35,253 nucleotides of DNA from Candidatus Effluviviaceae Genus V sp. (lineage in GTDB: Bacteria > Joyebacterota > Joyebacteria > Joyebacterales > Joyebacteraceae), in assembly GCA_014728125.1 (NCBI GenBank), contig WJMD01000081.1, forward strand, positions 1-35,253. Direction: 5' to 3'. The translations under genes and the position numbers were made by a program. Below are positions 17,823 to 35,221 of this stretch, in pieces. Each line of letters opens with the position of its first letter. Position 1 is the stretch's first letter. The notes under the pieces are model-generated. The model searched no databases. It saw only the letters and a program-made list of their open reading frames with translations, and was not told where the DNA came from.

Positions 17823-18428
17823 CTACTCCCGCATGTCGCGGCGTTCGTCGAGCGCGGTACCGAGCGTCAGTTCGTCGGCGAGGTCCAGCTCGCCGCCGAC
17901 GGGAAGTCCGCTCGCGGGACGGGTGACGCGGACCCCGTGGGGCGTCAGCAGGCGGCCGATATAGAGAGCGGTCGCCTCGCCCTCCGTCGTGGGGTTCAGC
18001 GCGAGGATAGCCTCCGAAAGCTCTCCTCCCCGAGCCCGCTCGATGAGGGTGTCCATCCTGAGGTCCTCGGGGCCGACCCCATCGAGCGGCGACAGGAGGC
18101 CGCCGAGCACGTGATACCGGCCCCGGTAGCGGCCGGTCCTCTCGATGGCCAGCACGTCGCTCGGACGTTCGACGACGCAGATGAGCGACGCGTCGCGCCG
18201 TTGGTCGCGGCAGATCGAGCAGACCTCGTCCTCCGTGAAGGCGCCGCAGACGGAGCACCTGAGCGTGCGCCTCCGCGCCTCGACGAGCGTCCGGGCGAGC
18301 TCACGGACCTCCGGTTCGTTCCGGTCCATGAGCTTGAGCGCGATGCGAGTGGCTGACTTCCGGCCGACGCCGGGCAGTGTGGAGAGCAGTCTGACGAGCC
18401 TCTCGAGTGTCTCGGGGAAGCCGAACAT
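17823..18428 (-). CDS. recR: Recombination mediator RecR
   Basis: RecR loads RecA at gaps with RecF/RecO. The 201-residue product has the helix-hairpin-helix LSTLPGVGRKSATRIALKL, a four-Cys zinc finger (C58, C61, C70, C73: CSVCGAFTEDEVCSIC) and a Toprim domain with VVERPSDVLAIE, HVLGGLLSPLDGVGP and ALNPTTEGEATALYI. All features are present. Start: ATG at 18428, 8 bases after the ybaB stop; the ribosome site is weak (TAGG overlapping that stop). Last gene of tadA-tRNAs-SRP-dnaX-ybaB-recR. Confidence 0.97.
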   Translation of the reverse strand: MFGFPETLERLVRLLSTLPGVGRKSATRIALKLMDRNEPEVRELARTLVEARRRTLRCSVCGAFTEDEVCSICRDQRRDASLICVVERPSDVLAIERTGRYRGRYHVLGGLLSPLDGVGPEDLRMDTLIERARGGELSEAILALNPTTEGEATALYIGRLLTPHGVRVTRPASGLPVGGELDLADELTLGTALDERRDMRE

Positions 18429-18436
18429 CGCGTGGC

Positions 18437-18751
18437 CTACATCGTGCCCGGAGGAATGGCCATGCCCGTCACCTTCGACATCTCCTCGGCGGCGAGCTTG
18501 TCGGATCGTTCCTTGGCGTCCCGGAGAGCCGAGACGAGAAGGTCCTCGAGCATCGACGCGTCACCGTCCTCGATGACCGACGGGTCGATAGAGACGCCCA
18601 GCACGTCACGCTGTCCGTTCATCGTGACGCTGACGGCGCCGCCGCCGGCCGTTCCCTCGACCTTCATGTCGGCCAGCGATGCGCGGACCTCCGCGACGCG
18701 CTTCTCGAGCTTCTGTGCTTCCTTGAGCATCTTCTGCAGGTTCTTCGCCAT
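18437..18751 (-). CDS. ybaB: YbaB/EbfC family nucleoid-associated protein
   Basis: The 104-residue product opens MAKNLQKMLKEAQKLEKRV, has the glycine-rich GTAGGGAVSVTMNGQ, and the VSIDPSVIEDGDASMLEDLLVSALRDA stretch typical of YbaB/EbfC, a small dimeric DNA-binding protein. Start: ATG at 18751 with GGGGAG eight bases upstream; the dnaX stop is 5 bases before. The place between dnaX and recR is conserved in many bacteria. Confidence 0.95.
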   Translation of the reverse strand: MAKNLQKMLKEAQKLEKRVAEVRASLADMKVEGTAGGGAVSVTMNGQRDVLGVSIDPSVIEDGDASMLEDLLVSALRDAKERSDKLAAEEMSKVTGMAIPPGTM

Positions 18752-18756
18752 GCGTT

Positions 18757-20445
18757 CTACTCCCCGTCAGAGGTCTCGGTCACTGAACCGTCGAACACCT
18801 CGACGATCCGCTCCACCATGGGGTCGCCGCCCACCGGCCTCTTCTCCGCAACGGGTTCGTTCGCGCCTGTCTCCTCCGCCTTCGTTCTCGGAGCGGCGGA
18901 GGAGAACTCCAGGCGGATCCGTACGCGACGGCCGAGCACCTCGTCCGCCGCCTCCCGGAGGATCCCCATGTTGTTCCCGTCGAGCAGCTGGTCGCGGTGG
19001 AACGGCGAGCCGTTCTCGATATGCACGACGAGTTCCTCGTCGCCGCCCCAGCGGGCCGCGGACTCGGCCAGCGACGCAGCCAGCCCCGGCTTGCGGCTGC
19101 GGACGGCCGAGACGACCCGCTCCCAGCTCGGTTCGGCCGGGCCGTCGGGCCTCGCCTCTCCCCGTCCAGCCACGACATCGTGGGAACGGCCCGCCCGCGC
19201 CTTCCCGCGGCCGGCCGCGGCGGACGTCTGCGTCCTCGGAGCCGCGCCGGGCTGCGACCGCTCCATGCGACGGCCCCGCGGACCGGCGCGACCCTCGGTC
19301 GTCCCGGTGCCGGAGGCGCCGCCGGAGAACGAGCGAACAATCTCATCGATGGCCACCGTCCGCGGCAGTCTGGCCATGCGCACGAGTGCCATCTCCACAA
19401 GCACACCCGGCTGCGTGCTCCAGCGCACGTTGCTCGCGGCCTCGGTGGCGATGTGCACCAGACGGATGAGGTCGTCCTCGCCGAGGGTCGAGGATGAGCC
19501 ATCCCGTGATCGGTACTCCTCGATCCGGCCCACGAGCCGCTCCGGATCGGGCGCCGTGCGGACGATGAGCAGGTTCCGGAGATGCTCCAGGAGGCCGTCG
19601 ATCAGGTCGCGCGGGTCGAACCCCGCGTCGAGCGCCTTCTCGAGAGCCTTGAGCGTTCCCGCGACGTCTCCGTCGGCGACGGCGTCGGACAGGGCGAAGA
19701 AGATCTCGCTGTCCGGGATACCGAGCACGTCGACGACGCTGTCGACGTCGATCGAGCCGCCCCCGACCGATATGAGCTGGTCGAGCAGACTCTCGGCGTC
19801 CCGCATACTGCCGTCGGCCCGGGTCGCAACGAGACGCAGGGCCGCGGGGTCGATCTCGATCTCCTCGGAGCGCGCGATCTCGCGCAGGCGCTCCTCGATC
19901 TCGGGCGTGGCGATGCGGTGGAAGTCGAAACGCTGACATCTCGAGAGGATCGTGTCCGGAATGCGGTTGGGCTCGGTCGTGGCGAGGATGAAGACGACGT
20001 GAGGCGGGGGCTCCTCGAGCGTTTTGAGGAGCGCGTTGAAAGCCTCACGGGTCAGCATGTGCGCCTCGTCGATGATGTAGATCTTCGTGCGGCCGGAGAG
20101 CGGGGCGTACTGCACGGTCTCTCGGATACCCCTGGCGTCCTCGATGCGCCGGTTCGAGGCGCCGTCGATCTCGATAACGTCCAGGCTCTTGCCGGATGAG
20201 ATCTCCCGGCACGCGTCACACTTTCCACAGGGCGATGGTGTGGGGCCCTGCTCGCAGTTCAATGCCTTCGCCAGAATGCGCGCGATCGTCGTCTTGCCGA
20301 CGCCGCGCGGTCCGGCGAACAGGTACGCGTGCGCAAGGCGGTCGGACGTGACCGCCGCCTCGAGCGTCACGACGACGTGGCGCTGCCCGACGACGTCGGC
20401 GAATGTCTCAGGACGCCACTTGCGTGCGAGGACGAGATAGGACAT
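18757..20445 (-). CDS. dnaX: DNA polymerase III subunit gamma/tau
   Basis: The 562-residue clamp-loader ATPase has Walker A GPRGVGKTT (45-53), four zinc Cys (C64, C73, C76, C79; CGKCDAC), Walker B with KIYIIDEAHML, the sensor-1 region VVFILATTEPNRIPDTILSRCQRF and DGSMRDAESLLDQ. Domain III follows to about 350, then a Gly/Arg/Ala-rich linker (about 380-440) and a C-terminal region of tau type. Start: ATG at 20445 with GGAGG four bases upstream. I did not see an obvious programmed frameshift (A-rich slippery run) for making gamma. It sits just downstream of the SRP RNA. Confidence 0.96.
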   Translation of the reverse strand: MSYLVLARKWRPETFADVVGQRHVVVTLEAAVTSDRLAHAYLFAGPRGVGKTTIARILAKALNCEQGPTPSPCGKCDACREISSGKSLDVIEIDGASNRRIEDARGIRETVQYAPLSGRTKIYIIDEAHMLTREAFNALLKTLEEPPPHVVFILATTEPNRIPDTILSRCQRFDFHRIATPEIEERLREIARSEEIEIDPAALRLVATRADGSMRDAESLLDQLISVGGGSIDVDSVVDVLGIPDSEIFFALSDAVADGDVAGTLKALEKALDAGFDPRDLIDGLLEHLRNLLIVRTAPDPERLVGRIEEYRSRDGSSSTLGEDDLIRLVHIATEAASNVRWSTQPGVLVEMALVRMARLPRTVAIDEIVRSFSGGASGTGTTEGRAGPRGRRMERSQPGAAPRTQTSAAAGRGKARAGRSHDVVAGRGEARPDGPAEPSWERVVSAVRSRKPGLAASLAESAARWGGDEELVVHIENGSPFHRDQLLDGNNMGILREAADEVLGRRVRIRLEFSSAAPRTKAEETGANEPVAEKRPVGGDPMVERIVEVFDGSVTETSDGE

Positions 20446-20481
20446 GAGGCCTCCGTTCGCGGGACGGCATCCGAACCCCCT

Positions 20482-20759
20482 GCTCTGGCACGCGTCTGTC
20501 TCGACGCCTCGACGCGGAGGGTCGCCGGCCAGTTGGCTCCGGCCAAGCGTCCCCGCGGCACATCGAACTGGCGGCTTACGGCTGCTGCCTCCCGGCCCTG
20601 ACCGGATTCACCGGGTCCGATTGCGCGGGACCTGACCCTCGACACCACTTCTCCGGCTCGCCTGCCGCGACTGAGGACGCCTCGGACAGATGTTCGACCC
20701 CGCTTGAGCGGATTGCGGGTTACAGGGCACCGCTGGCTCCCCGTCTAGCGTGCCAGAGC
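20482..20759 (-). ncRNA. ffs: Large (Bacillus-type) signal recognition particle RNA with Alu domain
   Basis: The minus strand contains the conserved SRP helix-8 core GGTCAGGGCCGGGAGGCAGC (around 20590-20610), with a GGGA tetraloop. Two stems flank it: ATCGGAC/GTTCGAT and GTCCCGCGCA/TGTGC..GGGAC. The 5' part carries Alu-domain sequences much like Bacillus scRNA: GACGGGGAGCCAGCGGTGCC, CTGTAACCCGCAATCCGCTC and GAAGTGGTGTCGAG. The ends pair perfectly over 12 bases (20748-20759 with 20482-20493). Beyond a short internal loop, an outer 8-base stem (20764-20771 with 20471-20478) may extend the precursor. Total about 278 nucleotides, so this is the large type, not the 4.5S form. Position between tadA/tRNAs and dnaX equals Bacillus. 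Confidence 0.93.
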
Positions 20760-20825
20760 GGGCGGGTTCGGTTGGAGGTCATCCGGAGGCCCGCCGCGTG
20801 AGCTGCGACGGGCCCCGGTGTCGTC

Positions 20826-20901
20826 TGGTGGAGATGAGCGGGTTCGAACCGCCGACCTCTGCCTTGCGAAGGCAGCGCTCTCCCAACTGAGCTACATCCC
20901 C
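20826..20901 (-). tRNA. tRNA-Ala(CGC)
   Basis: The minus-strand cloverleaf starts GGGGATGTAGCTCAGTTGG. The anticodon stem CTGCC/GGCAG encloses TTCGCAA (anticodon CGC), the T loop is TTCGAAC, and the acceptor end CATCTCC is followed by A and an encoded CCA (20828-20826). It lies 66 bases upstream of the SRP RNA. Confidence 0.95.
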
Positions 20902-20930: not shown

Positions 20931-21020
<90 letters not shown>

Positions 21021-21035
21021 TGCACTCAAGCGGTC

Positions 21036-21125
21036 TGGCGGTGGGGGTGGGATTCGAACCCACGGTACCCAGAGGGTACAACGGTTTTCGAGACCGCCAC
21101 GATCGACCAGCTCCGTCACCCCACC
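21036..21125 (-). tRNA. tRNA-Ser(CGA)
   Basis: Acceptor GGTGGGG/CCCCACC, anticodon stem GCGGT/ACCGT with loop CTCGAAA (anticodon CGA), long variable arm (GTACCC-TCT-GGGTAC), T loop TTCGAAT, discriminator G and an encoded CCA. It lies 8 bases after the tadA stop and 15 bases before tRNA-Ser(GGA), so all are probably cotranscribed. Confidence 0.95.
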
Positions 21126-21133
21126 GGCGTTCG

Positions 21134-21610
21134 CTATCGCCTTCGGGAACGCAGCGACCGGAAGAACGAGGACACCAGGTCGCCGCATTCGTCCGCCATG
21201 ACTCCCGAGGTCAGGGCCACCCGATGGTTGAGGCGCGGATCATCCAGTGTGTTGGCGAGCGAGCCCGCGTACCCGGTCTTCGGGTCGGGACAACCGTAGA
21301 CGAGACGTTCCAGTCGGGCCAGCACGATCGCTCCCGCGCACATCGGGCAAGGCTCCATCGTAACGTAGAGCGTTGCCCGAGTCAAGCGCGGGACCCCGAG
21401 CGACCGGGACGCTGCGCCGATGGCGAGGACCTCGGCGTGCGCGGTCGGATCTCCCGTGGTCTCCGTCTGGTTCCGGCCGCGGCCGACGATGCGTCCGTCC
21501 TGGACGACGACCGCTCCGACGGGCACCTCGCCCTCATCATATGCGGCGCGCGCCTCGTCGAGTGCCGCCTCCATCCAGACGCTGTCGTCCCCCGAGACGC
21601 GTCCCCGCAT
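21134..21610 (-). CDS. tadA: tRNA-specific adenosine deaminase
   Basis: TadA converts A34 to inosine in tRNA-Arg(ACG). The 158-residue product has the deaminase signature: H58-A-E60 (TAHAEVLAI) and PCPMC (C88, C91; MEPCPMCAGAIVLAR), plus VPVGAVVVQDG and GRGRNQ. Start: ATG at 21610 with AAGGAG six bases upstream; it has its own promoter at 21664-21692. The substrate tRNA-Arg(ACG) is encoded at 32740. Upstream of tRNA-Ser, SRP RNA and dnaX, the position matches Bacillus yaaJ. Confidence 0.95.
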   Translation of the reverse strand: MRGRVSGDDSVWMEAALDEARAAYDEGEVPVGAVVVQDGRIVGRGRNQTETTGDPTAHAEVLAIGAASRSLGVPRLTRATLYVTMEPCPMCAGAIVLARLERLVYGCPDPKTGYAGSLANTLDDPRLNHRVALTSGVMADECGDLVSSFFRSLRSRRR

Positions 21611-31242: not shown

Positions 31243-32463
31243 CTATCGCCTGACCTCCATCCAGTCGTAGATCTGCTGCCAGTCGTTGTTCGTCATGTTC
31301 GGCGTCACATTGCTGAACGACGGGTCGGGGAACGCGATCGGCTCGGTCACGACCATGACGGAGTCGCCCTCCCACGTGTGGTAAGGGAAATAGTCCCTCA
31401 GGTCGTCCAGCGGGTCGTTGAAGAACTCGGCGACGTCGAAGTAGACGTCGATGTCGGGTGCCGCCACATCGTCCGTGTCCTCGGACGGATTGAATGTGAC
31501 CCCGTAGATCAACCAGTCCTGCATCTCACCGGCGTAGAAGCGGATCGAGTCGACGGCGCCTGCCCCCATCATGTCGTCGAGCGGGATGAGCCCCAGCGTC
31601 TCCGTGATGAGGTCGTTCGTCTGATCGTCGGTCTCCGCCTCGAGCTCGTCGCACCCGTCGAGGAGATGCTCCGACATGTCGACCATCTTGTCGTAGGCGG
31701 TCGCCATGTGGTCGTCGTTCCTGAGGGTGAGGAAGTCCTCATCCTCCTCGATCAGGTGGTACTGCGTCTCGCCGGCCTCGACGTCCATGTTGTACGAGAC
31801 GACCATGGCGAACATGCTCTCGAGACCGTCGAGCGGCGCGTGGATGAAGTACGCGTCGGTCGCGTCGATCTCGATCTGGACGGTCTCCCGGCGCTCCGGG
31901 ATCTCGACCTCGATCGTGAAGGAGCAGTCCTGCGTTTCGAAGGCGGTCAGCCTGCTGTCGGCGTAGGCGAGCGCGGGCATGACCTCTGACTCGATGAACT
32001 CCTGGATCTCCGAGAAGAGGATCGGGTCGTCCTGCCTGATACGGTCGATCCGGTCGGCGACGGCGAAGACGTTGGGCTTGTCGAGCATCCAGAGCAGCGG
32101 CGCCTCGCGCGAGGCCCGCTCCTCCTCCCACCCCTCGTCCATGATATCGCCCAGATCCTCATCGGTCGCCACCATGAGCAGGCGGACGAACGCCGAGAAG
32201 AACAGGGCGCCGCAGTGGTCCGAGTCCGCGTCGAGGGCGTCCTCGAAGTCCGACTGGGCCTTCGACAGGTCGACCTCCCACTCCCAGGGGGCCTCCTCGG
32301 TGTCCACGTCCTCCATCTCGTCCATCAGCTCGTCCATACCCGTCGCGAACGAGGCCTCCGCCTCCGCCTCGTCGGCCTCCTCGAAGAGGTCGCTGCAGCC
32401 GGCGAGACCGAGCACGAGCGCCGTCAGCAGCAGACCGCAGCTGAGAATCCTCACCAGTTTCAT
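31243..32463 (-). CDS. Acidic lipoprotein of unknown function
   Basis: The 406-residue product has a classic lipoprotein signal: MKLVRILS, a hydrophobic core and lipobox LAGC with Cys23, followed by Ser-Asp, which suggests the outer membrane by the +2 rule used in other diderms. The mature part is very rich in Asp and Glu (for example DEAEAEASFATGMDELMDEM, EDVDTEEAPWEWEVD), with long helical repeats, and may bind cations. I do not recognise the family; an N-terminal TPR-like part is possible. Start: ATG at 32463 with AAGGGGG upstream (ATG 32466 adjacent). It is a single-gene unit with promoter at 32510 and terminator at 31172. Confidence 0.8.
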   Translation of the reverse strand: MKLVRILSCGLLLTALVLGLAGCSDLFEEADEAEAEASFATGMDELMDEMEDVDTEEAPWEWEVDLSKAQSDFEDALDADSDHCGALFFSAFVRLLMVATDEDLGDIMDEGWEEERASREAPLLWMLDKPNVFAVADRIDRIRQDDPILFSEIQEFIESEVMPALAYADSRLTAFETQDCSFTIEVEIPERRETVQIEIDATDAYFIHAPLDGLESMFAMVVSYNMDVEAGETQYHLIEEDEDFLTLRNDDHMATAYDKMVDMSEHLLDGCDELEAETDDQTNDLITETLGLIPLDDMMGAGAVDSIRFYAGEMQDWLIYGVTFNPSEDTDDVAAPDIDVYFDVAEFFNDPLDDLRDYFPYHTWEGDSVMVVTEPIAFPDPSFSNVTPNMTNNDWQQIYDWMEVRR

Positions 32464-32509
32464 CATCTTCCCCCTTGAGAGAGTCTGTTTCCCGAACCTC
32501 ACCGCTGCG

Positions 32510-32539
32510 AGCATAGAAGGGTCAGGACGATCCTGTCAA
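32510..32539 (-). promoter_or_regulatory. Sigma-70-type promoter for the lipoprotein gene
   Basis: TTGACA (32539-32534), 18-base spacer, TATGCT (32515-32510): a near-consensus promoter, with the start expected near 32503 and a leader of about 40 bases. Confidence 0.75.
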
Positions 32540-32739: not shown

Positions 32740-32816
<77 letters not shown>

Positions 32817-32824
32817 GTTGCCTC

Positions 32825-32914
<90 letters not shown>

Positions 32915-32933
32915 GTTGGGAGCTCGTTCACGC

Positions 32934-33022
32934 TGGCGGAGGGCGAGGGACTCGAACCCCCAAGGGCCGTGAGGCCCGGCGGTTTTCAAGACCGCTGCCT
33001 TACCAGTTAGGTCTAGCCCTCC
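32934..33022 (-). tRNA. tRNA-Ser(UGA)
   Basis: Acceptor GGAGGGC/GCCCTCC, anticodon stem GCGGT/ACCGC with loop CTTGAAA (anticodon TGA), long variable arm (GGGCC-TCAC-GGCCC), T loop TTCGAGT, discriminator G and an encoded CCA. First of the three-tRNA unit; promoter at 33033. Confidence 0.94.
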
Positions 33023-33032
33023 TGCCGGGAGC

Positions 33033-33061
33033 AGTATAGCAACCCCCTAAACCCCTGTCAA
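33033..33061 (-). promoter_or_regulatory. Strong sigma-70 promoter for the Ser-Ser-Arg tRNA unit
   Basis: TTGACA (33061-33056), 17-base spacer, TATACT (33038-33033). Near-consensus, with the start only a few bases before tRNA-Ser(UGA). The -35 overlaps the T-rich tail of the preceding terminator. Confidence 0.85.
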
Positions 33062-33090
33062 ACAACAACAAGCGGCGTCCTCGATGCCGC
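33059..33090 (-). terminator. Terminator of the cysteine desulfurase-peptidase unit
   Basis: Stem GCGGC/GCCGC (33090-33086 with 33076-33072), 9-base loop, followed on the minus strand by TTGTTGTTGTTTG. It lies 23 bases after the peptidase-like stop. The stem is short but the T-rich tail is good. Confidence 0.55.
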
Positions 33091-33113
33091 CCAGGGGCCG
33101 TTCGAAGGGCCTG

Positions 33114-34055
33114 TCATTCCCACGAGCTGTCTGAGCCGGGTCTCCAGCGCGGCGGCCCCCCGTCGCTGTCCGACAGGGCCTCGAGACGGCGGCGCGACGT
33201 CGCCGCCCGGACGATCACGGCGACGATGACGAGGACCGCGATGACCAGGAACAGCAGCCTCCCGCTCCGCAGGAACATCGGCAGTCTGTAGGAACGGTTC
33301 ATCTCCCCGAGCACGCTCTCCTCGAAGGACGCGCGCGCCTGCCCCGTCAGGCGTGCGACGCCCTCGTCGAAACTCCCGGCCGCGGCGATGGCCCGGACGA
33401 CGCCGGGCGCCGTGCCGATCCCGCTCGTCTCGGCGAGGTGGTTGACGGCGAAGAAGCTCTCGACGTAGGCCGCCGCAGCGTCGCTCGAACCGTAGGGGAA
33501 CGACGCGTCGAGCTCGCTCAAGGGGATCGTACCGCCCCCCTCCACGCGGGCCACCATCGCGTCGAGGTTCCCCAGGCGCCACTCCCCCGCCGACATCATC
33601 GCGACGCCCTCGTGGAACCATCGGGGAGCCCGCACCCCCCTGAGGCCGCGTTCGGTCGCGACGTGGGCCAGTTCGTGGACCACGATCTGGCCCAGTGCGA
33701 GTGGGTAGTCGATGATACGGGGGCTCCTGAGAACGATCAGTGACCGCGAGGCGTAGGCCACGCCGACACCCCACTCCGGAACGGCGCCTCCGGTCAGTTC
33801 CCGGAAGGTCGTCTCGTCGGGCGCCACGACGACGCGGATGTCCGCGGGTGACTCGACGCCCATCTGCCGGTGCAGCCGTTCGGACGCCCCGGCTCCGATC
33901 TCGAGCACCCGCCGTGCGGCGAGCTCGTCTCCACTCGCGAACTCCACGGTCAGGTGGCCGCTCGTCTCCCGCATCCAGCCGGCCCCCGACGCGGCGAATG
34001 TCAGGGCGGACAGAAGAGCGAGGGCGACAAAGACGGTCCTGAGGCCGGGGCTCAC
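33114..34055 (-). CDS. Membrane-anchored HExxH (peptidase MA-like) metallopeptidase
   Basis: The 313-residue protein has an N-terminal signal or membrane segment (about 6-26). The gluzincin motif is HELAH (H127, E128, H131), with a downstream WFHEG (E149 as probable third zinc ligand). A C-terminal membrane segment (about 267-285) is followed by a short charged tail. This fits the peptidase MA-like family, most of the chain facing outside. Substrate unknown. Start: GTG at 34055 overlaps the cysteine desulfurase stop (GTGA). A dead or regulatory peptidase is possible, but all expected ligands are present. Confidence 0.8.
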   Translation of the reverse strand: MSPGLRTVFVALALLSALTFAASGAGWMRETSGHLTVEFASGDELAARRVLEIGAGASERLHRQMGVESPADIRVVVAPDETTFRELTGGAVPEWGVGVAYASRSLIVLRSPRIIDYPLALGQIVVHELAHVATERGLRGVRAPRWFHEGVAMMSAGEWRLGNLDAMVARVEGGGTIPLSELDASFPYGSSDAAAAYVESFFAVNHLAETSGIGTAPGVVRAIAAAGSFDEGVARLTGQARASFEESVLGEMNRSYRLPMFLRSGRLLFLVIAVLVIVAVIVRAATSRRRLEALSDSDGGPPRWRPGSDSSWE

Positions 34056-35221
34056 GCGGACCGCCTGTAGGTGGGTGACATCGCACGGAGACGCTCCACA
34101 ACGCCCGGGAGCACGTCGAGCAGCCGGTCGACGTCGTCGGACTTCGTCGAGCGCCCGAGTCCGAACCGTACGGAGCCCTGGGCGTCGCGGGGGGCGACCC
34201 CCATCGCCGAGAGCACGTGGGACGGTTCGTCGGAGTCGGTCGTGCAGGCTGAACCGGTCGAGACGGCGAAGCCCTCCATGTCCAGCGACAGCACGACGCT
34301 CTCCCCCTCGACATGCTTGAAGGCGAGGTTGAGTGTCCCGGGAATGCGGTGCTTCTCCGCTCCGTTCAGGAGAACCTCGGGGATACTGCCGAGGGCGCCG
34401 ACCTGAAGCCGCTTCGTGAGGGCCGCGAGTCTCTCTCCCTCTTCCGCGAGGTGCTCCGTCGCTATGCGGAGGGCCTCCGCGAGACCGACGATCCCGGGGG
34501 TGTTCTCCGTTCCGGGGCGCAGGCCCGCTTCGTGGCCGCCGCCGTGGGAGAGCGGGTCGAGTTTCACCCCGGGTCGGACGTAGAGGGCTCCGACGCCCTT
34601 CGGACCGTAGAGCTTGTGGGCGGACAGGGACAGAAGGTCGACCCCGAGTTCCGAGACGTCCAGCGGGATCTTCCCAACACTCTGCACGGCGTCGGTATGA
34701 AGCGTCACAGACCGCTCACGTGCGATCCGGGCGATCTCGCTGAGGGGCTGAATGACGCCCGTCTCGTTGTTGGCGTGCATGATGGAGATGAGCACCGTTT
34801 CCGGCCGCAGGGCATCTTCGACCGCACGCGGGTCCACGCGGCCGTCCCCGCCGACCGGAACGAATGTCACGTCGAATCCGAAGCGGTCCCGCATGTACTG
34901 GAGCGTATGGAGTACCGCATGGTGCTCGATGGCGGAGCTCACCACGTGGGCACGTTCGTCTCGCGCCCTGAACAGAACGCCCTTGATCGCGATGTTGTCG
35001 GACTCGGTGCCCCCGCTCGTGAACACGATGTCCTCAGGTCCCGCTCCGATGGCCGTCGAGACCTGCTCTCTGGCTGCGTCCACGGCGTGCCTGCTGCGCG
35101 CCGCGAGTTCGTACGGGCTCGATGGGTTGCCGAAGCTCTCGGAGAAGTACGGCAGCATCGCTTCGACGACGCGCGTGTCGACGGGTGTCGTCGCGTTGTG
35201 ATCCATGTAGACCGTGCTCAT
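34052..35221 (-). CDS. nifS: Cysteine desulfurase, NifS/IscS type
   Basis: The PLP enzyme removes sulfur from cysteine for Fe-S cluster or tRNA thiolation. The 389-residue product has YMDHNATTPVD, SGGTESDN, EHHAV (H101), HANNETG, the PLP lysine in SLSAHKLYGPKG (K203), GTEN and the active-site Cys326 in STGSACTTDSDEPSHVL. The Cys loop is of the class I (NifS/IscS) kind. Start: ATG at 35221 with GGGAG about eight bases upstream. No iscU or mnmA is visible nearby: the left neighbour is a peptidase and the right is beyond the window, so its partner is unknown. Por and other Fe-S enzymes here would need it. Confidence 0.94.
   Translation of the reverse strand: MSTVYMDHNATTPVDTRVVEAMLPYFSESFGNPSSPYELAARSRHAVDAAREQVSTAIGAGPEDIVFTSGGTESDNIAIKGVLFRARDERAHVVSSAIEHHAVLHTLQYMRDRFGFDVTFVPVGGDGRVDPRAVEDALRPETVLISIMHANNETGVIQPLSEIARIARERSVTLHTDAVQSVGKIPLDVSELGVDLLSLSAHKLYGPKGVGALYVRPGVKLDPLSHGGGHEAGLRPGTENTPGIVGLAEALRIATEHLAEEGERLAALTKRLQVGALGSIPEVLLNGAEKHRIPGTLNLAFKHVEGESVVLSLDMEGFAVSTGSACTTDSDEPSHVLSAMGVAPRDAQGSVRFGLGRSTKSDDVDRLLDVLPGVVERLRAMSPTYRRSA

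What the first reader, a model, noticed from the sequence alone, without database searches (positions are those of the whole stretch)
20471..20771. Large SRP RNA with Alu domain in a Gram-negative-looking bacterium
Many diderm bacteria have only the short 4.5S RNA. Here the 5' and 3' ends pair over 12 bases, plus 8 more after a small internal loop, and the Alu-domain sequences resemble Bacillus scRNA. The order tadA-SRP-dnaX-ybaB-recR is also Bacillus-like. This suggests an ancestral arrangement retained outside Firmicutes, or misjudged taxonomy.
Basis: partly seen in the sequence, partly recalled or inferred. Interest (0 to 1): 0.5.

Follow-up and report, generated by a model that had tools for sequence, protein, structure and literature searches.

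The report
Large SRP RNA in Eisenbacteria
This is a genuine, full-length signal recognition particle RNA of the large kind best known from Bacillus, here in a bacterium with an outer membrane; the genomes compared with it suggest that this large form is common among such bacteria, contrary to the usual Gram-positive versus Gram-negative rule.

Summary
The minus strand at 20488-20753 matches the whole Rfam model of the bacterial large SRP RNA (169.7 bits, threshold 60), and the terminal stem continues outward as described. The Alu domain has helix 1, the UGU motif and a five-pair loop-loop pseudoknot that covaries across 68 sequences. No second SRP RNA gene was found in the genome.

"Misjudged taxonomy" is rejected: the genome shares a family with Candidatus Eisenbacteria MAGs and encodes Omp85. 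The RNA is in 17 of 20 genomes of the phylum, one copy cut by a contig end. It is not an oddity either: 40 of 126 sampled genomes of other phyla have the large form, and 38 of those 40 encode Omp85.

Large and small SRP genes often share one place, just before dnaX (29 of 40, 29 of 53), about half or fewer with the same tRNA neighbours. This supports an old shared locus; the direction of change is unproven.

In Eisenbacteria the gene lies 40-67 nt before dnaX without a T-rich terminator and has a covarying longer stem, so excision by RNase III is proposed, untested.

The parts
20488..20753 (-). large SRP RNA gene (extent of the Rfam model)
   Evidence: RF01854, 169.7 bits, model 1-256/256; no other SRP RNA match in the genome
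20698..20753 (-). 5' part of the Alu domain (5' side of helix 1, helices 2-4)
   Evidence: Rfam alignment; helices 2, 3, 4 and pseudoknot: 97.8% of 1120 cells paired, double-sided changes in 14 of 17 pairs over 68 sequences, 66 distinct
20730..20734 (-). loop 3 arm of the loop-loop pseudoknot (AGCGG)
   Evidence: 5 pairs, 99.7% of cells paired, 4 of 5 pairs with changes on both sides
20707..20711 (-). loop 4 arm of the loop-loop pseudoknot (CCGCU)
   Evidence: as above
20720..20724 (-). UGUAA, holding the UGU motif of the Alu domain
   Evidence: found at RNA position 30; UGU motif described in PMC8137916 (passages)
20538..20637 (-). S domain core (helix 8 side), site where Ffh binds in known SRPs
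   Evidence: RF00169 match, 65.9 bits, model 1-97
20590..20593 (-). helix 8 tetraloop GGGA (GNRA type)
   Evidence: read from the Rfam alignment
20754..20771 (-). 5' arm of the extended terminal stem outside the Rfam model
   Evidence: fold; 12 added pairs in 16 Eisenbacteria: 82.3% of cells paired against 36-52% when slid
20471..20487 (-). 3' arm of the extended terminal stem outside the Rfam model
   Evidence: as above
20788..20814 (-). hairpin between tRNA-Ala and the SRP gene (10-pair stem with one G-U, no T run); role unknown
   Evidence: read by eye from the sequence; similar GC-rich hairpins seen by eye in many, not all, relatives
20826..20901 (-). tRNA-Ala(CGC)
   Evidence: ARAGORN
20931..21020 (-). 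tRNA-Ser(GGA)
   Evidence: ARAGORN
21036..21125 (-). tRNA-Ser(CGA)
   Evidence: ARAGORN
21134..21610 (-). tadA, tRNA adenosine(34) deaminase
   Evidence: NCBIfam NF008113, 177.7 bits, cut-off 150
18757..20445 (-). dnaX, DNA polymerase III gamma/tau; start codon 42 nt after the SRP model end
   Evidence: NCBIfam TIGR02397, 452.8 bits, cut-off 250; gap
18437..18751 (-). ybaB/ebfC nucleoid-associated protein
   Evidence: TIGR00103, 82.0 bits, cut-off 49.45
17823..18428 (-). recR
   Evidence: TIGR00615, 242.6 bits, cut-off 162.55

Best explanation
The gene makes a full bacterial large (6S type) SRP RNA. Shown: it has an S domain, a helix 5 stalk and a complete Alu domain with helix 1 and a five-pair loop-loop pseudoknot kept by compensatory change; within Eisenbacteria, which have an outer membrane, it is conserved and follows the same clade as DnaX. 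Inferred from the B. subtilis work: the S domain carries Ffh and meets FtsY (both encoded), while the Alu domain docks at the ribosome's factor site and slows elongation during targeting. Inferred from the anatomy: in Eisenbacteria the RNA is transcribed on into dnaX without its own T-rich terminator and is cut out of the precursor at the long terminal stem, most likely by RNase III, then trimmed.
For: Full-length Rfam match. Helices 2-4 and the pseudoknot covary over 68 sequences: 97.8% of cells paired and 14 of 17 pairs with double-sided change, against 33-55% and 4-8 pairs when slid. Full-length in 16 of 20 genomes of the phylum, the window's own included, plus a contig-edge fragment in a 17th. 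No second gene found. Ffh (N-terminal end not on the stretch held), FtsY, two HU/IHF-family proteins and RNase III are encoded. Omp85: six matches. Extended stem in 16 Eisenbacteria: 82.3% of 192 cells paired over 12 added pairs, 29 cells with double-sided change against 10.7 in shuffles. In 16 of 16 the gap to dnaX is 40-67 nt with no T run above 3, whereas 3 of 4 Bacillota checked have T runs of 6-8 there. RNase III is involved in maturing the scRNA precursor of B. subtilis (PMC3328962, passages). 'Dock-and-block' by the Alu domain in B. subtilis, and a five-pair pseudoknot in bacteria and archaea: PMC8137916 (passages).
Against: No RNA data: ends, processing and abundance are unmeasured. 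The outer half of the extended stem is imperfect (0 to 6 of 6 outer pairs formed), and part of the shuffle control is weak (pairs with double-sided change reached in 36 of 500 shuffles, pair types in 97 of 500). A short gap to dnaX without a T run is not peculiar to Eisenbacteria: of 29 large-SRP genomes of other phyla with dnaX next door, 22 have gaps of at most 100 nt and 19 have no T run of 5 or more, mostly without so long a stem. Slowing of elongation is not shown here. Three of 20 genomes of the phylum gave no match in two searches. No promoter-like site was found, so the transcription unit is unknown.
Confidence: 0.85

Rival explanations
1. The gene was acquired laterally from Bacillota, or the contig is a contaminant.
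For: The Alu sequence and the place before dnaX look Bacillus-like.
Against: SRP RNAs of the phylum form one clade with full support in the RNA tree and their DnaX proteins likewise; tadA is upstream in 14 of 16 loci and dnaX downstream in 16 of 16; the best DnaX relatives are Eisenbacteria.
Confidence: 0.03
2. Only the S domain is used; the Alu part is a relic that is trimmed away.
For: The small SRP RNA suffices in many diderms, and no RNA ends are mapped.
Against: Compensatory change keeps the Alu helices and the pseudoknot, and 45 of 61 Alu columns are invariant in the 16 Eisenbacteria.
Confidence: 0.04
3. The long terminal stem is not a processing site but a leader element of dnaX, for example an attenuator or a shield of the dnaX start region.
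For: It ends 25 nt before the dnaX start codon in the window, and no terminator is seen. Most other phyla with short gaps do without so long a stem.
Against: The stem joins the two ends of the SRP RNA rather than reaching the ribosome-binding site, and RNase III is involved in maturing the corresponding precursor in B. subtilis (PMC3328962, passages).
Confidence: 0.25
4. The bacterial ancestor had a small SRP RNA and the Alu domain was gained or spread several times.
For: PMC1586193 (passages) argues that the short form is ancestral; on the DnaX tree the large/small label needs 22 changes on 98 tips, so many changes in either direction are possible.
Against: The Alu sequence is much alike in all groups, and large and small genes often share one place with the same tRNA neighbours, which fits trimming in place more simply than repeated gain. 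Starred branches force only one change, so the tree decides little.
Confidence: 0.25

Closest known systems
Rfam RF01854 Bacteria_large_SRP; B. subtilis scRNA / 6S SRP RNA
   Same: Full model length, Alu and S domains, helix 1, UGU motif, five-pair pseudoknot; place before dnaX as in the Bacillota examined.
   Different: Carried by bacteria with an outer membrane; no T-rich terminator before dnaX and a longer terminal stem. That some diderms have it is not wholly new: PMC1586193 already names Thermotoga (passages).
Rfam RF00169 Bacteria_small_SRP; E. coli 4.5S RNA
   Same: Helix 8 core, GNRA tetraloop; in 29 of 53 small-SRP genomes of other phyla the gene also sits just before dnaX.
   Different: Lacks the Alu domain; the small model scores 65.9 bits on the core of this gene, the large one 169.7.
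Archaeal and eukaryotic 7S SRP RNA
   Same: Alu and S domain division.
   Different: They have helix 6 and SRP19 (recalled); not tested here.

Membership tests
Bacterial large SRP RNA (RF01854) | Full-length match above the gathering score | tested here: met
   169.7 bits against 60, model 1-256
Bacterial large SRP RNA (RF01854) | Alu domain with loop-loop pseudoknot and UGU motif | tested here: met
   double-sided change in 4 of 5 pseudoknot pairs; UGUAA at RNA position 30
Bacterial large SRP RNA (RF01854) | Helix 1 joining the two ends | tested here: met
Bacterial large SRP RNA (RF01854) | Helix 8 core that binds Ffh, and an Ffh gene | tested here: met
   RF00169 core; ffh model TIGR00959, 479.1 bits against 473.2, on the part held; binding itself not tested
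Bacterial large SRP RNA (RF01854) | Mature RNA of about 270 nt | not testable with these tools
   no RNA data
Bacterial large SRP RNA (RF01854) | Alu domain slows elongation on the ribosome | not testable with these tools
   described for B. subtilis (PMC8137916, passages)
Bacterial small SRP RNA (RF00169) | No Alu domain, about 100 nt | tested here: not met
RNase III-matured precursor (as B. subtilis scRNA) | Long terminal duplex around the mature RNA and an RNase III gene | tested here: met
   duplex; RNase III TIGR02191, 240.6 bits
RNase III-matured precursor (as B. subtilis scRNA) | Cleavage by RNase III | not testable with these tools
   needs the enzyme

The most novel reading that the evidence does not exclude
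The Alu-bearing SRP RNA is the original bacterial form, fixed very early just before dnaX-ybaB-recR and after Ser/Ala tRNA genes and tadA, and many diderm lineages trimmed the Alu domain off in place. The textbook Gram-positive/Gram-negative split in SRP type is then an accident of which species were studied, and Alu-mediated slowing of translation would operate in much of the diderm world, Eisenbacteria among them, where the RNA is released from the dnaX transcript by RNase III.
Probability: 0.4. Interest if true: 0.6.

Novelty: new member of a known kind. Interest (0 to 1): 0.4.

Why it matters
Papers describe the SRP Alu domain as typical of Gram-positive bacteria and missing from Gram-negatives (PMC4359368 and PMC8137916, passages). 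The survey here finds the large form in many genomes with an outer membrane, so envelope type does not explain who has an Alu domain. That makes the question why some bacteria keep Alu-mediated pausing testable, by comparing lineages that have the large or the small form at one and the same locus.

Tried and rejected
Rejected: chance (full-length scores); contamination or transfer from Bacillota; a second, small SRP gene in the genome (in one search, 150 of 255 first-look candidates were scored). Also rejected as 'intermediate' forms: matches that span the whole large model with only 121-236 nt and 39-102 bits. Eight of these are in the named set; for the six examined the small model wins, and in five of the six the large-model match runs into a neighbouring tRNA gene (alignments were shown for three of the six). 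Those in the unnamed set were not examined one by one. As large I counted only the matches of at least 255 nt and 107 bits.

Led nowhere: the promoter and terminator scan found nothing; the DnaX tree is too poorly resolved to tell direction (20 of 109 inner branches starred); stems as long as in Eisenbacteria are not general in other phyla, though their flanks too pair somewhat better than swapped ones (7 of 53 below -15 kcal/mol against 2.2% of swapped pairs; means -8.9 and -6.7).

Papers: ten searches. None listed a paper on large SRP RNA in Eisenbacteria, and no held paper has both 'Eisenbacteria' and 'signal recognition particle'; the library lacks most subscription journals. Regalia 2002 (cited second-hand in PMC4359368) and Rosenblad 2009 (recalled) on SRP RNA distribution were not read, so the wide distribution may already be partly in print. 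In PMC7203096 the held part has no passage on the terms sought.

Limits of the survey: neither SRP RNA family rang in the control B. subtilis, which has the large RNA, so misses are no proof of absence and the counts of large forms are lower bounds. The 126 genomes are those the 'relatives' option drew, unnamed, one per family, 118 of them Omp85-positive; they are not a random sample and say little about monoderms.

Full report
Observation. Rfam's bacterial large SRP RNA model matches the minus strand at 20753..20488 over its entire length, 169.7 bits against a gathering score of 60. The neighbours on the same strand are tadA, tRNA-Ser(CGA), tRNA-Ser(GGA), tRNA-Ala(CGC), SRP, dnaX, ybaB, recR. 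The large and the small model each hit only this place in the genome.

Whose genome. The closest DnaX relatives among those kept are Candidatus Eisenbacteria MAGs at 50-58% identity. Three genomes of the window's own family are such MAGs by identical places, and a fourth probably, by size and candidate number. The genome holds six Omp85 matches; that family rings in the seven control genomes with an outer membrane and in none of B. subtilis, Corynebacterium, Lactococcus and four archaea (the full list of controls is seen). One weak LptD match has 27 bits, cut-off 22.4. So the organism very likely has an outer membrane and its taxonomy is not misjudged.

Conservation in the phylum. 16 of 20 genomes, the window's own included, have a full-length match of 162.6-187.5 bits; a 17th has the 5' part, cut by a contig end; three (G010, G016, G018) gave nothing in either search. 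The 16 RNAs form one clade with full support, as do 15 DnaX proteins. Of 61 Alu columns 45 are invariant.

Alu domain. Over 68 of 70 large SRP RNAs (16 Eisenbacteria, 38 of 40 unnamed, 14 named; 66 distinct), the 17 pairs of helices 2, 3, 4 and the loop-loop pseudoknot are formed in 97.8% of 1120 cells, with double-sided changes in 14 pairs; slid structures reach 33-55% and 4-8 pairs. The five pseudoknot pairs are formed in 99.7%. A five-pair pseudoknot is what PMC8137916 reports for bacteria and archaea (passages). The Alu domain is therefore under selection, not a relic.

Distribution. Of 126 genomes from other phyla drawn by the 'relatives' option, 40 have a large RNA (255-288 nt, 107-218 bits), 53 another, mostly small or partial match, and 33 none (sizes). 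Of the 40, 38 encode Omp85; of the other 86, 80 do. In the named set, 17 of 49 genomes have a full-length match above 140 bits: four Bacillota, three Eisenbacteria, three Poribacteria, Planctomycetes DG_23, an Armatimonadetes, two Chloroflexi, Dormiibacter, a Thermoleophilia and one labelled Deltaproteobacteria. In a draw of 78 from the Poribacteria phylum 71 pass the cut-off. Weaker whole-model matches are not counted: of eight in the named set six were examined and are small SRP RNAs, five of them with the large-model match running into a tRNA gene. B. subtilis, a control that has the large RNA, did not ring, so negatives are weak.

The locus. dnaX starts on the same strand within 600 nt downstream in 29 of 40 large-SRP and 29 of 53 small-SRP genomes from other phyla (31 of 53 if matches that overlap are allowed, and in one of the 40 the contig ends too soon). 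A tRNA-Ser(CGA or GGA) or tRNA-Ala(CGC) gene lies on the same strand between 700 nt upstream and 300 nt downstream in 21 of 40 and 22 of 53. tadA lies within 600 nt upstream, same strand, in only 8 of 40 and 8 of 53 by a tblastn with the window's protein. In Eisenbacteria dnaX is found in 16 of 16 loci, tadA, ybaB and recR each in 14 of 16, the missing ones being cut by contig or locus ends; all three tRNAs were found in 13 of 16. Large and small genes thus often occupy one locus, which makes change of size in place the simplest account. The DnaX tree needs 22 changes of the large/small label on 98 tips (200 shuffles: mean 32.6, range 24-39), but well-supported branches force only one, so the direction stays open.

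Maturation. In all 16 Eisenbacteria the gap from the SRP model end to the dnaX start is 40-67 nt with no T run longer than 3, while Amphibacillus, Acetivibrio and one Bacillota MAG have T runs of 6-8, and a second MAG 4, in gaps of 149-293 nt. Instead the terminal helix is prolonged: 12 added pairs, 82.3% formed, 29 cells with double-sided change against 10.7 in shuffles, and flanks pair better with their own partner than with another species'. RNase III, involved in maturing the scRNA precursor of B. subtilis (PMC3328962, passages), is encoded. I infer that the SRP RNA is cut out of a longer transcript that goes on into dnaX. Against a special arrangement: short gaps without a T run are also common in other phyla (19 of 29 without a run of 5 or more), mostly without so long a stem. 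This step is untested.

Function. Ffh, FtsY and two proteins of the HU/IHF family are encoded; in B. subtilis the HU protein HBsu binds the Alu domain (cited in PMC4359368, passages). Slowing of elongation by the Alu domain is taken over from B. subtilis and is not shown here.

Verdict. The feature is real, correctly named and ordinary in kind. Its interest lies in the distribution: papers describe the Alu domain as a Gram-positive trait (PMC4359368, PMC8137916, passages); PMC1586193 treats the short form as probably ancestral, already names Thermotoga as a bearer of the domain, and asks for it to be sought in other Eurybacteria (passages). The genomes examined here do not fit a Gram-positive rule.

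Noticed in passing
window 32740-33022: A second tRNA cluster, Arg(ACG), Ser(GCT), Ser(TGA), on the same strand.
   Followed up: no
L115 1671-1762 and L120 1168-1256: A tRNA-Sec gene stands directly after the small SRP RNA gene in Thermosulfurimonas and Thermodesulfobacterium.
   Followed up: no
The genome search controls: B. subtilis does not ring for either SRP RNA family although it is known to have the large RNA: a false negative of the first look, or a masked stretch.
   Followed up: no
L164 and L168: Large SRP RNAs with an extra insertion, by eye about 13-22 nt, between helices 3 and 4 of the Alu domain.
   Followed up: no
L167: An Alu domain whose loop sequences differ from the others in the alignment, apparently with a replaced pseudoknot.
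   Followed up: no
G000 contig C115, locus L238: ftsY follows a gene whose product looks like the end of an SMC protein (by eye), as in the rnc-smc-ftsY order of B. subtilis (PMC3328962, passages).
   Followed up: no
window 31243-32514 and 33058-34314: Two ORFs of 423 and 418 aa without a Pfam match at E 0.001.
   Followed up: no
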